Assembly: GCA_903813345.2 (NCBI GenBank)
Contig: CAIIXF020000011.1
Coordinates: 20,815,754 to 20,879,753, forward strand
Direction of reading: 5' to 3'
Origin: Owenia fusiformis
Lineage: Eukaryota > Annelida > Polychaeta > Sabellida > Oweniidae
DNA length: 64,000 bases
Shown: in pieces, positions 56,255 through 62,295 of the stretch
How the letters are laid out: each line of letters starts with the position of its first letter
How positions within the stretch are numbered: the stretch's first letter is position 1
The notes under the pieces: generated by a model
The model's input: only the letters and a program-made list of their open reading frames with translations
Databases searched by the model: none
What the model was told of the DNA's origin: nothing
Made by a program: the position numbers and the translations under genes

Positions 56255-56312
56255 ATGCATTACTACATTGTGGTGGTGTACTGGGTCCTGTACCGATTTC
56301 ATAACATAACAG
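56255..56312 (+). CDS. Leader exon of the TSP1-galaxin gene
   Basis: ATG at 56255 opens MHYYIVVVYWVLYRFHNIT, a hydrophobic stretch suited to a signal peptide. The exon ends at a good donor (cag|gtacaa) in phase 1, matching the phase-1 acceptor at 56517. The start is the only in-frame ATG. Identification rests on splice phase and hydrophobicity only. Confidence 0.45.
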
Positions 56313-59300: not shown

Positions 59301-62295
59301 TCTATGTTACCCACTGATGTATCAATAACTTCGATTTCAATTCCAACAAAAGAAACACCAATAAAGGAAACATTTGCGCCAGTATTTCAAAGTACTACAG
59401 AAGTTAAAACAATCGAATTTTACGGCGATCAAAATATTACAGAAACTCAAATAACTGAACGTACAACACAGAATCAAACATCCGAGAGACTAACAACTGA
59501 AAGAGATACGCCTCCACTCCCAACGTTTAAACCAACTACGGCATTGACAATGGGTATGCTCCAACTAAGCATTTAAGTATAATAGATTGCTATATTTAGT
59601 GTATCATCCCAACATCTATACTACTGTGCATCGCATCCCAGATAGAATTGACATAGTCCAAAAATCTCCTGTTTTATAGGATGTATTTGGAGCAGTTGGG
59701 GATCTTACATCGACAGAATATGTTCAAAGCCGTGTGGGTCTGGCATATTGAAAAGGACGCGAACAAGAAACAAGATGATAGGCAGTTCCACTGACCCATC
59801 TCATTGTATTGGAAGCTCTGTTGATATTTCAACGATAATATGCAATACAATCAAATGTAAGCATGATAGGTTTATGTTTGAAATAAATCGCTTTTTGCTT
59901 TTTTAAAATTAGGAATCTCCTATTCAAACATGGATATGTGGAAACCTAGGCGCCAATCAAACGGGTATTACTTGCAATTTTCTATGTTGTTGTGTTTACA
60001 GACACCCATCTTTTGTTACAGTTTCATCTGAGTTTTGTACGTCTGAATATACCTAACATGTACATGTATAATGAATCTAGGTTGTATCTGGAGCAAGTGG
60101 AGTTCAAATGAGTATGTAACATGCACTAAACCCTGCGGAACTGGAATCAAGTTGAGCACTAGAACCAGAACTCGTATGTACATCACAACAGGGAATAGTC
60201 CTATATGTACAGGAGAGTCCATTCGAACAAATACTGCACCATGCAATACTAAACAATGTAAGAAAAACAAGCACCTGTATTTTTATCAGATCTGCTTATT
60301 ATTATTTCGTCAACTGTCTTAATAAAGGACGACTCATATTTAACACAGGTTACATGAAAGAATGTAAACAAGCTACTGTTGTCATCACAAAACCATTTTT
60401 CTTCTTTTCACAACCTTTATTTTACCAAACAGGACATTTCGGATCTTGTCTGGATCCTTTTTCAACTGAATACAAACTTTTCCTGTGAAAGGAAGAAAAA
60501 ATAGTTTTATGATTCAATAATCCAACCTGAAGAACATGTTTAAGAATACTGTTATCATGTTTGATAAGGTAATCACACAGTGATGTATGGTATTCATTAT
60601 TCTACAGGTTGTAATTGGGGAAACTGGGGCAGTTATCAGTTTGGTCCATGCTCGAAAACTTGTGGTAGAGGGAAGCATACCGGAAGGCGTACGAGGAAAA
60701 AGGTTAATAGCAGTATTGGAACAACCCCAAACTGTAAAGGTTCACCTAAGTCAACGTTCAGCAGATCGTGTAATACACAACCGTGTCTCAAAACAGCATG
60801 TATGTACTTTCAAAAGGCGTATGTCCAAGATAGTACAGGTTGACCCAAAAAAATGCAACCCTCCATTTCTTCAATATTTTTCTTAAATGGAGATAAATTG
60901 CTCTGAGATTTGGCACTCATTCAATGTGGGATCCTCTGGAAAAGTTTTAATAATCATAGTCTTATATTGATAGAGTTATGGTTGTTTCAAAATATGCTCC
61001 AGATGTCGTCAATTTCGCTGAAAACAAAACTTGCAATGTTCAAGGAAAACTGTTCATAACACGGATGCATTCTTCCCAATGGGTATGGCTCAAATTTTTG
61101 CAGCCATTGCTTATTGGAGTTCTGCAATTGCGGTAGGGTTATTTTCATACACATTATCCTTTAAATAACCCCATATATAGAAGTCGGGGGCATTGAGATC
61201 AAGACTGAGATGACCATGGGTTCTCCGTCCTTGGAGAGATCATCTTCTCATAGAAATGACTAGTGAGCCAGGCTATTTCTTGTTTATTGACGCCTCAAAA
61301 CCACTCTAGAACTGCCTAGAACTTCCTGGGAACGCAAATATTGCGCTGTGTCTTAACAGTAACAGTGTTGGCATTATCAACCTCAAACCAAAAGGGGCTG
61401 GTGATTTCATGTTTGGATATTGGCAGCCAAAGCTGTGCATTTAACAGAATGAAGGGGCCTTTGAAGCACTTCATCTGGAATTTGTGATCCCAGAACACAT
61501 TATTTCTTGAGTTTACATGTTCAGAAAGAAGGGAGTGTGATTCATCTGAAAACCTTACATTGGAAATGGACGACATTTGGAGCATATTTTGGAACGACCA
61601 TAGCTCTATCTATAAGACTATGGTTATTGAAACTTTGCCAGAGGATTCCACATTGAATGAAGTCATTGTGTGCCAAATTTCAGAGCAATTAATCTCCATT
61701 TAAGAAAAATATTGAAGAAATGGAGGGTTGCATTTTTTGGGTCACCCTGTATATTAAATATATATCAATATTTGCTATTTGCTGTGCGTCCAATTACACA
61801 CCAAATCTTGTACTTCACGATAAAGACAGACTAAATATGTATCATCTCTTTTTAGCTGCAAGGGGCTGTCAACGGTGCGATTCTAGTTGCGGCAGATTTC
61901 CAGCAAACACAATGTGTTGCTTTGGCTGTTGTGTCACTCGCACTGGAGTCAAATCGAGCTGTTGTGGAAAACGTAGCTATGACACGTCTGGAAGCCTTTG
62001 CTGTGGAGGGAAAATAGTTAGCAAAACTGGATTTAGGTCACAATGCTGTGGCACCAGGAGTTATGACACTTCAAATAGTCTTTGCTGTGGAGGGAAGGTA
62101 GTTAGCAAAACTGGATTTAGGTCACAATGTTGTGGTAGGCGAAGTTACGACACAACAAACAGTCTCTGCTGCGATGGTGTGATCCAAGCAAAACCCGGTT
62201 TTAGGTCTGCATGTTGTTGTAAAAAGGCATATGACACTTCAAAAGCTAAATGTTGTAGCGGCTGTAGAATTTGCTCAAATTTTCCTTGGAATTGA
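56255..62295 (+). CDS. Secreted Cys-rich / VWC-like / TSP1 x3 / galaxin-repeat protein
   Basis: Proposed exons: 56255-56312 (leader), 56517-56811 (Cys-rich), 59098-59553 (VWC-like plus Thr-rich linker), 59680-59856, 60081-60257 and 60608-60799 (one TSP1 domain each), 61856-62295 (galaxin repeats, stop). Every intron is phase 1. The four junctions from exon 3 to exon 7 join cleanly in frame. Two problems sit in exon 2: a one-base excess shifts the frame between its two Cys modules, and its phase-1 donor joined to exon 3 would create TAG. So exon 2 is damaged, an exon is missed, or the assembly has an indel there. A polyadenylation hexamer aataaa is at 62370-62375. The product should be extracellular, in matrix, mucus or biomineral; its function is unknown. 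Confidence 0.7.
56517..56811 (+). CDS. Cys-rich exon with +1 frameshift
   Basis: The first module reads TLCKDGSITAYDIPC, then TDCPIGSRCTQWECCELTC, then a stop. From about 56642 another frame reads NHCKRGYPLRDRF, TTCYRNRRGQLRCPGNATC and HKICCNGSDC. Both have a C..(G)..C..CP.G..C..CC..C spacing reminiscent of lustrin/WAP-like modules. The exon is 295 nt, one more than a symmetric phase 1-1 exon needs. The donor is t|gtaggt at 56812. A tiny intron between the modules does not fit phases. It may be a pseudo-exon or a sequence error. Confidence 0.5.
56880..57190. repeat. 45-bp tandem repeat
   Basis: Units of aagtacactaagtcaaatta plus gtacaaaacatttgtatatt are repeated about five to six times, more diverged at the left. 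The last unit is split by the element at 57206-58800, after which aagtacactaagtcaaatta resumes. Confidence 0.85.
57206..58800. mobile_element. Element with tandem internal repeats and PyGACAGACGGA tail
   Basis: The ends are inverted (ggctcacatggtg..gctcaaaag at left; cttttgcaatcact is the complement of the right-hand agtgattgcaaaag, which is followed by ctcaccatgtgagct). The interior has about nine units of roughly 110-180 bp containing aacttaaaacgggaatccta, ttcgcgagacaaaa, atggcggccattttgaaaa and gaaccaggagtcatatggga. A gacagacggatggacggaca tract lies near the right end. It splits the 45-bp repeat array in an intron of the TSP1-galaxin gene. Short open frames inside are repeat artefacts. Confidence 0.75.
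59098..59553 (+). CDS. VWC-like domain and Thr-rich linker exon
   Basis: After the acceptor gcag, the frame reads TTCTVEGDEVPRWKTW, then DGCRKCRCNKRLQCK and LPQC, a short C..W..(D)GC..C.C....C...C arrangement like a von Willebrand type C or related module. About 110 residues follow rich in Thr, Ser and Pro (for example TERTTQNQTSERLTTERD), likely an O-glycosylated mucin-like spacer. The phase 1 donor gg|gtatgc at 59554 fits the next exon. Confidence 0.7.
59680..59856 (+). CDS. TSP1 domain exon 1
   Basis: The frame reads CIWSSWGSYIDRICSKPCGS, GILKRTRTRNK and later HCIGS and IICNTIKC. The WSSW, CSKPCGSG and RTRTR blocks are those of thrombospondin type-1 repeats. The exon is 177 nt, phase 1-1. 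Confidence 0.85.
60081..60257 (+). CDS. TSP1 domain exon 2
   Basis: The frame reads CIWSKWSSNEYVTCTKPCGT, then GIKLSTRTRTRMY, ICTGES and APCNTKQC: a full thrombospondin type-1 repeat. It is also 177 nt and phase 1-1, so it arose by exon duplication of its neighbour. Confidence 0.88.
60608..60799 (+). CDS. TSP1 domain exon 3
   Basis: The frame reads CNWGNWGSYQFGPCSKTCGR, then GKHTGRRTRKKV, NCKGSP and RSCNTQPC, a complete thrombospondin type-1 repeat in a 192-nt phase 1-1 exon. The donor at 60800 (gtatgt) splices over the mariner copy B into the galaxin exon. Confidence 0.88.
60836..61749 (-). mobile_element. Mariner-like element, copy B (complete ends)
   Basis: Long terminal inverted repeats (caggttgacccaaaaaaatg at left; cattttttgggtcaccctg at right) are flanked by TA on both sides. 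Inverted similarity continues for about 200 bp per arm. Minus-strand fragments [20 protein letters not shown] and [13 protein letters not shown]-type text mark a decayed DDE transposase. It sits in the last intron of the TSP1-galaxin gene, about 36 bp after the exon 6 donor and 106 bp before the exon 7 acceptor. Confidence 0.88.
61856..62295 (+). CDS. Galaxin-type di-cysteine repeat exon
   Basis: After the acceptor tttag, 146 codons to the stop include GCQRCDSSCGRF and four tandem modules of about 26 residues: CCGKRSYDTSGSLCCGG, CCGTRSYDTSNSLCCGG, CCGRRSYDTTNSLCCDG and CCCKKAYDTSKAKCCSG, joined by KTGFRSQ-type linkers. CC(G)xxxYDxxxxxCCxG is the repeat of galaxin, first known from coral skeleton, and of di-Cys domains in some animal extracellular proteins. 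The protein ends soon after, without a membrane segment. Confidence 0.85.

What the first reader, a model, noticed from the sequence alone, without database searches (positions are those of the whole stretch)
56255..62295. TSP1 domains joined to galaxin-type repeats in one secreted gene
The sequence shows three TSP1 exons spliced in frame to an exon of four CC(G)xxxYDxxxxxCC modules, preceded by a VWC-like domain and a Thr-rich spacer. Galaxin repeats are known from coral skeletal matrix and some animal extracellular proteins, and TSP1 domains bind matrix and glycans. The combination is unfamiliar to me and suggests a matrix, mucus, adhesive or biomineral protein.
Basis: partly seen in the sequence, partly recalled or inferred. 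Interest (0 to 1): 0.75.

Follow-up and report, generated by a model that had tools for sequence, protein, structure and literature searches.

The report
Worm matrix gene: thrombospondin-plus-galaxin mosaic
A probable worm genome carries a small gene family whose secreted proteins join a sticky "thrombospondin" part to the cysteine-rich "galaxin" repeats first known from coral skeletons, and the copy found here seems to have a damaged or skipped front exon.

Summary
Window 59098-62295 (+) carries five exons that join in one open frame through phase-1 introns: a six-cysteine VWC-like module with a Thr-rich spacer, three TSP1 exons and an exon of four galaxin repeats. Joined, they pass Pfam's cut-offs for TSP_1 (34.4 bits, cut-off 21.6) and Galaxin_repeat (81.0, cut-off 28). 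The best support is a paralog 1.03 Mb away: hydrophobic start, two-part Cys-rich module, VWC-like/Thr, six TSP1 and four galaxin repeats, open over ten joined exons to a stop, 686 aa. Partial relatives lie at C11:19.80-19.82 Mb and C2:5.18 Mb; C11:22.26 Mb has galaxin before TSP1.
Corrections: the 5' exon (from 56517) is 10 bases longer than in both paralogs and runs into a TAA (56657), so the full-length form does not read through as assembled; skipping that exon keeps the frame. "VWC" has no Pfam support. Nothing found points to mineralisation.
Most likely a secreted, disulfide-rich matrix protein of cuticle, tube or mucus in an annelid; antimicrobial action is a serious rival. The paper searches showed no such combination. 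New variant of a known kind.

The parts
56255..56312 (+). candidate exon 1: signal-peptide-like MHYYIVVVYWVLYRFHNIT, phase-1 donor CAG|GTACAA
   Evidence: open when joined to 59098. My scan for hydrophobic first exons found candidates in both paralogs but did not list this one, because its donor GTAC was outside the pattern; for the window it listed another, 55337-55430. No signal predictor was run.
56517..56811 (+). exon 2 (3' end uncertain: 56805, 56811 or 56815): two-part Cys-rich module M1-M2, frame-shifted here by a net 10-base insertion near 56645-56660, leading to TAA at 56657
   Evidence: M1 and M2 each match the paralogs in different frames; paralog L003 reads both in one frame; alignment, stop; M2 matches 3 places genome-wide, itself included
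59098..59553 (+). exon 3: six-Cys VWC-like module (59100-59225) and Thr-rich acidic spacer (59226-59552; 27% Thr, pI 4.3); acceptor may be 59095
   Evidence: related exons at C11:19835945, C11:19801724, C2:27913350 and, weakly (E 0.03), C2:21635013; no Pfam match for the module
59680..59856 (+). exon 4: TSP1 domain 1 (CIWSSW...CSKPCG)
   Evidence: PF00090 27.8 bits, E 3e-6; phase 1-1
60081..60257 (+). exon 5: TSP1 domain 2 (CIWSKW...CTKPCG)
   Evidence: PF00090 18.4 bits, E 0.0024; phase 1-1; its three best matches elsewhere are TSP1 exons of the paralog (150 of 298 candidates scored)
60608..60799 (+). exon 6: TSP1 domain 3 (CNWGNW...CSKTCG)
   Evidence: TSP1_ADAMTS 20.2 bits, E 7e-4; phase 1-1
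60845..61745 (.). DNA transposon copy with about 172-nt terminal inverted repeats, inside the TSP1-galaxin intron
   Evidence: inverted repeats; 34 other places match 800 or more of the 901 bases at 86-91% identity, a lower bound as 40 of 321 candidates were scored
61856..62295 (+). exon 7: N-terminal Cys-rich cap, four galaxin repeats, tail, stop TGA 62293-62295
   Evidence: PF24748 83.9 bits, E 1.2e-23; repeats; phase-1 acceptor at the same place in 4 of 4 copies compared

Best explanation
This is one member of a small, apparently lineage-specific family of secreted mosaic proteins. Anatomy (shown by sequence): hydrophobic first exon, Cys-rich M1-M2 module, VWC-like module with a Thr-rich spacer, a variable number of TSP1 exons (six in the intact paralog, three here, one TSP1-like exon in a partial copy on C2), and a C-terminal galaxin block. 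The core exons are phase 1-1, so TSP1 cassettes can be gained or lost without breaking the frame. Mechanism (inferred): the protein is secreted by surface or gland epithelium; the Thr-rich spacer is O-glycosylated and extended; the basic TSP1 modules bind acidic glycans or matrix proteins; the galaxin block (26 Cys in 145 residues) forms a disulfide-stabilised repeat unit that anchors or cross-links the protein in cuticle, tube or mucus. The window copy, as assembled, can give an uninterrupted protein only if exon 2 is skipped or shortened.
For: Open joined frame and phases; Pfam on the joined protein; intact ten-exon 686-aa paralog with the same order, itself over both cut-offs (PF24748 78.2, PF00090 23.9 bits); the VWC-like exon lies beside M1-M2 in 3 of 3 places that carry M2; pS exceeds pN in 12 of 12 window-paralog comparisons; WxxW in 3 of 3 TSP1; pI 9.1-10.3 for TSP1 and galaxin parts. 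Literature: Riftia galaxin transcript abundant in body wall (PMC2175520, passages); ancestral galaxins proposed as structural ECM proteins (PMC2726143, passages).
Against: No transcript seen. Exon 2 of the window copy is frame-shifted, so this copy may be decaying. T2 and T3 fall below Pfam cut-offs alone. dS is saturated in 7 of 12 comparisons, so current selection is untested. One squid galaxin is reported as antimicrobial (PMC5216023, passages). Structure prediction failed (pLDDT 51), so the disulfide-repeat idea has no structural support; CC pairs may form internal loops and leave few cysteines for cross-links (PMC2726143).
Confidence: 0.55

Rival explanations
1. A secreted defence protein: the basic, Cys-rich galaxin block acts on microbes at an epithelial surface, and the TSP1 and Cys-rich modules hold it on mucus or target microbial glycans.
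For: EsGal1 of the squid Euprymna has antimicrobial activity against Gram-positive bacteria and affects symbiont growth (PMC5216023, passages; PMC7853314, passages; original paper not held); the galaxin block is basic, pI 9.1; module content varies among the relatives.
Against: Antimicrobial activity is reported for one galaxin in the passages I read; the coral galaxins there are treated as matrix proteins. A Thr-rich spacer and TSP1 domains are typical of matrix and mucus proteins (general knowledge).
Confidence: 0.25
2. The window copy is a pseudogene or dying duplicate: exon 2 is frame-shifted, and the paralog at C11:19.83 Mb is the working gene.
For: Net +10 bases with TAA at 56657 in exon 2; no second copy of this stretch found in the assembly (2 matches, itself and the paralog); transposon insertion in the last intron.
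Against: The five later exons are open and keep phase and the TSP1 and galaxin cysteines; skipping exon 2 keeps the frame; an assembly error is possible. Both halves of exon 2 carry the mark of past constraint (pS 0.64-0.89, pN 0.19-0.28), so the shift is recent or artefactual.
Confidence: 0.3
3. Two neighbouring genes: a TSP1 gene and a separate galaxin gene.
For: A transposon lies between T3 and the galaxin exon, and an in-frame ATG at 61837 precedes the exon (MYHLFLAARG).
Against: The galaxin exon begins at a phase-1 acceptor in 4 of 4 copies compared; the paralog reads TSP1 into galaxin in one frame; the partial copy on C2 also has a TSP1-like exon just upstream.
Confidence: 0.04
4. A biomineral matrix protein like coral galaxin.
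For: Coral galaxins are skeletal matrix proteins.
Against: No RXRR site, the mark of galaxins sensu stricto (criterion from PMC6824150); the modules measured are basic; the genome is probably that of an annelid without a mineral skeleton (inference).
Confidence: 0.04

Closest known systems
Galaxin and galaxin-related proteins (Pfam PF24748; coral galaxin, Riftia galaxin, squid EsGal1)
   Same: tandem repeats of about 28-30 residues with two CC motifs; Cys-rich; probably secreted
   Different: galaxin repeats are only the C-terminal block; the front is M1-M2, VWC-like, Thr-rich and TSP1; no RXRR site. Acropora galaxin is described as a signal peptide and mostly repeats (PMC2726143, passages).
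TSP1 (thrombospondin type 1) mosaic proteins, spondin-like group with a Cys before the WxxW strand (grouping recalled)
   Same: 6 Cys, WxxW, C-x3-CG; phase 1-1 exons
   Different: TSP1s sit between a VWC-like/Thr-rich exon and galaxin repeats; T1 and T2 lack the CxxS/TC motif that T3 has
Coral mucin4-like and CAP-TSP1 skeletal matrix proteins (PMC4890752, PMC7853314)
   Same: TSP1 domains shuffled into secreted matrix proteins
   Different: no galaxin repeats in those proteins as described in the passages read
VWC / SVWC domains
   Same: C-x(n)-W-x-S-x-D-x-C-x2-C-x-C-x(n)-C-x(n)-C pattern of the first half (pattern recalled)
   Different: 6 Cys, not the 10 or 8 recalled for VWC and SVWC; no Pfam match; only a sub-threshold SVWC hit in a distant relative, L012 (16.7 bits, cut-off 27)

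Membership tests
Galaxin-related proteins (PF24748) | match above the curated Pfam cut-off | tested here: met
   83.9 bits vs 28; 81.0 in the joined protein
Galaxin-related proteins (PF24748) | tandem repeats of about 30 residues with two di-cysteines each | tested here: met
   four repeats 28 residues apart
Galaxin sensu stricto (scleractinian) | RXRR endoprotease site | tested here: not met
   no R.RR in the 479-aa joined protein (exons 1-2 not included); criterion from PMC6824150
TSP1 domain (PF00090) | match above the curated cut-off | tested here: met
   T1 alone 27.8 bits, joined protein 34.4 (cut-off 21.6); T2 and T3 alone are below
TSP1 domain (PF00090) | six cysteines and WxxW | tested here: met
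   3 of 3 domains, same positions
VWC domain | Pfam match / ten cysteines | tested here: not met
   whole exon: only Sgo0707_N1 on the spacer, below its cut-off, at E up to 1; 59100-59270: none at E up to 10; 6 Cys
Secreted protein | signal peptide, no transmembrane segment | tested here: inconclusive
   hydrophobic candidate first exons in window and both paralogs, chosen among several candidates in the paralogs; no predictor available
Skeletal/biomineral matrix protein | protein found in a mineralised matrix | not testable with these tools
   no proteome or expression data held

The most novel reading that the evidence does not exclude
A lineage-specific family of modular surface proteins with fixed end caps (M1-M2/VWC-like in front, galaxin behind) and an adjustable stack of TSP1 cassettes between them (six, three, one, perhaps none), used to tune the stickiness or glycan binding of a tube, cuticle or mucus; galaxin and TSP1 were joined at least twice in this genome, in opposite orders.
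Probability: 0.3. Interest if true: 0.6.

Novelty: new variant of a known kind. Interest (0 to 1): 0.42.

Why it matters
Galaxins are discussed mostly as coral skeleton proteins, yet related repeats occur in soft-bodied animals with uncertain roles. A family in which galaxin repeats are the C-terminal block of TSP1 mosaics, in a probable annelid, supports the view that galaxin repeats are general extracellular matrix (or defence) modules later recruited to skeletons, and offers a testable case: an intact and a damaged paralog on one chromosome with different TSP1 counts.

Tried and rejected
Two neighbouring genes: rejected because of the shared phase-1 acceptor and the paralog. A full VWC domain: not supported by Pfam. 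M1-M2 as a known Cys-rich family: no Pfam match for the window or paralog modules and no meaningful PDB match for the paralog's (one at E 0.58). PDB relatives of the window galaxin block: none at E up to 10; of the VWC-like relative L012: none. AlphaFold of the galaxin block alone (pLDDT 51.2) and of three of its repeats with two other window stretches, one aligned in shifted and one in the same register (pLDDT 51.0), was too poor to use, so no fold search was run. A 58-base intron inside exon 2 would step over the shift but would delete a conserved part of M2; two variants were translated and both met a stop. Papers: searches for galaxin with thrombospondin type 1, TSP1, TSP-1, thrombospondin plus domain architecture, annelid, tube, tubeworm, squid plus antimicrobial, and Owenia showed no TSP1-galaxin protein in the listings, or in the passages I read of PMC6824150, PMC2175520, PMC4890752, PMC7853314, PMC2726143, PMC5216023 and PMC3204972 (where the two words belong to different transcripts). 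One search listed 15 of 2,562 papers. The library holds open-licence papers only, and no eukaryotic protein database could be searched.

Weak points of my own analyses: the galaxin HMM held one paralog row read out of frame; the TSP1 HMM was trained on exons from the very loci it then found, so its hits are not independent; two rows (window M12, L005 galaxin) were anchored out of frame, and the frames were read instead. The paralog's first exon was picked from two hydrophobic candidates. The Hyd_WA hit on the C2 galaxin ORF (47.1 bits, over its cut-off of 21, no stretch passing on its own) was taken as a repeat artefact and not followed up. The TSP_1 genome search scored 150 of 1008 candidates, so it cannot show where TSP1 is absent.
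Full report
Observation. Borders, phases and the joined translation were computed: 59098-59553 (VWC-like and Thr-rich), 59680-59856, 60081-60257, 60608-60799 (TSP1) and 61856-62295 (galaxin) start after AG and, but for the last, end before GT; the introns between them are phase 1; the joined frame is open for 479 residues to TGA. Pfam on single exons gives Galaxin_repeat 83.9 bits (cut-off 28), TSP_1 27.8 for T1 (cut-off 21.6), and below-cut-off TSP1 matches for T2 (18.4) and T3 (20.2 with TSP1_ADAMTS, cut-off 23.8). The joined protein passes both cut-offs, 81.0 and 34.4 bits. The three TSP1 domains share six cysteines at identical positions and WxxW; four CCxxxYDx(6)CC units lie 28 residues apart.

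Independent support from the same genome. G000 has 498 Mb; the window is C11:20815754-20879753. PF24748 gave 96 matches at E 0.01 or better, many from the same ORFs and some with stops. Around C11:19.83-19.84 Mb a paralog carries M1-M2, the VWC-like exon, six TSP1 exons (plus a fragment) and a four-repeat galaxin exon in the same order. Joined at phase-1 borders it reads 686 residues from a hydrophobic start to a stop without interruption (three acceptors for the VWC-like exon were tried and each stayed open). Its sixth TSP1 has a displaced cysteine. More galaxin ORFs follow it up to 19.8468 Mb. A third relative at C11:19801158-19801927 has M1-M2 and the VWC-like exon; my HMM found no TSP1 between it and the next galaxin exon at 19818851, and whether these form one gene is open. 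At C2:5177179-5177376 a TSP1-like stretch that lacks its first cysteine and a clear acceptor precedes a 422-residue ORF with twelve galaxin units.

How common is the pairing? I fetched DNA around galaxin loci in 10 regions besides the window. With my HMMs TSP1 was found in 4 of the 11 (window, C11:19.8, C2:5.16-5.18, C11:22.26) and not in C9:8.67, C3:11.53, C3:4.47, C3:8.38, C8:37.13, C11:1.33 and C8:17.41. Other galaxin matches (for example C89, C170, C193) were not examined. At C11:22.26 Mb the order is reversed: a galaxin ORF with a phase-1 donor (AGACAG|GTAGAG) and then four TSP1 exons of a more conventional kind; that these join is an inference, and the galaxin ORF also has a stop of its own about 60 bases past that donor.

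The damaged exon. In the paralogs at 19.83 and 19.80 Mb, M1 and M2 are one continuous frame. In the window the same exon is 10 bases longer (11 more, 1 fewer) at the M1-M2 junction, beside a near-repeat of TGTAAAC, and M1's frame meets TAA at 56657. No second copy of this stretch was found in the assembly. Each half shows pS well above pN against the paralogs, so the change is recent or an assembly fault. Joining exon 1 (56255-56312) directly to 59098 gives an open frame of 499 residues; ending exon 2 at 56645 and using the 59095 acceptor is open too (543 residues), but with 59098 it meets a stop. Which is used, if any, needs RNA.

Constraint. In 12 of 12 window-against-paralog comparisons of modules pS exceeded pN (pS 0.52-0.89, pN 0.19-0.37); the weakest case was T2 (0.52 against 0.37). 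dS was saturated (infinite) in 7 of the 12, so no ratio is claimed.

Organism. Eryth_link_C (PF16915) gave three matches over its cut-off in one cluster on C6, one of them with a stop; that this domain belongs to annelid haemoglobin linkers is recalled. The size and the pattern of contigs (C1-C12 carry megabase coordinates; the other contigs seen carried under 0.14 Mb) resemble Owenia fusiformis, 505.8 Mb in 12 chromosome-scale scaffolds (PMC9977687, passages). This is a lead, not an identification.

Mechanism. Shown: modules, order, phases, composition. Inferred: secretion, glycosylated spacer (27% Thr, three N-x-S/T), C-mannosylation at WxxW (3 of 3 TSP1) and O-fucose at T3 only (motif meanings recalled; positions), glycan binding by basic TSP1 (pI 9.3-10.3), and disulfide anchoring by the galaxin block. 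The matrix reading is preferred because a Riftia galaxin transcript is abundant in body wall beside exoskeleton chitin-binding transcripts (PMC2175520, passages) and because authors on Acropora galaxins suggest an ancestral structural matrix role (PMC2726143, passages). The antimicrobial rival rests on squid EsGal1 (PMC5216023 and PMC7853314, passages; the original paper is not held). How CC pairs bond is unsettled in print: they may form internal loops and leave few cysteines for cross-links (PMC2726143), which weakens a cross-linking role.

Novelty. It is a galaxin-related protein by profile and repeat structure, not a galaxin sensu stricto (no RXRR in the joined 479 residues). Nine paper searches in the held library showed no TSP1-galaxin protein (listed in Tried and rejected); eukaryotic protein databases could not be searched, so absence from databases is not claimed.

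Noticed in passing
window 60845-61745: A DNA transposon copy with about 172-nt inverted ends in the TSP1-galaxin intron; 34 other places match 800 or more of its 901 bases (a lower bound), one of them in the window at about 40639-41557. A Tc1/mariner-like transposase remnant was judged by eye only.
   Followed up: partly
window 56991-57184 and 57983-58710: Tandem repeats of 45 bp (4.2 copies) and 152 bp (4.8 copies) lie in the stretch between the exon-2 region and the VWC-like exon.
   Followed up: no
L007:7788-8555 and L007/L013 8852-11025 (C11:22264788-22268025): Galaxin ORF followed by four conventional TSP1 exons with compatible phase: a possible second galaxin-TSP1 combination in reverse order.
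   Followed up: partly
G000 C12:6.16-6.53 Mb and 21.75-23.69 Mb, C4:11.47-11.93 Mb: Many TSP1 exons here are the next-best relatives of the window's second TSP1 after the paralog's.
   Followed up: no
L005:7567-8832 (C2:5.1776 Mb): One ORF with twelve very similar galaxin units, a likely recent tandem expansion.
   Followed up: no
G000 C6:31594297-31597023: The PF24748 search also returned a run of below-cut-off matches, each with four TAG stops and offset by 252 or 336 bases, that looks like a satellite rather than a gene.
   Followed up: no
window 62940-64000, minus strand: Downstream ORFs on the other strand, Lys/Glu-rich and coiled-coil-like by eye; one gave only sub-cut-off Pfam matches and the other none.
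   Followed up: no
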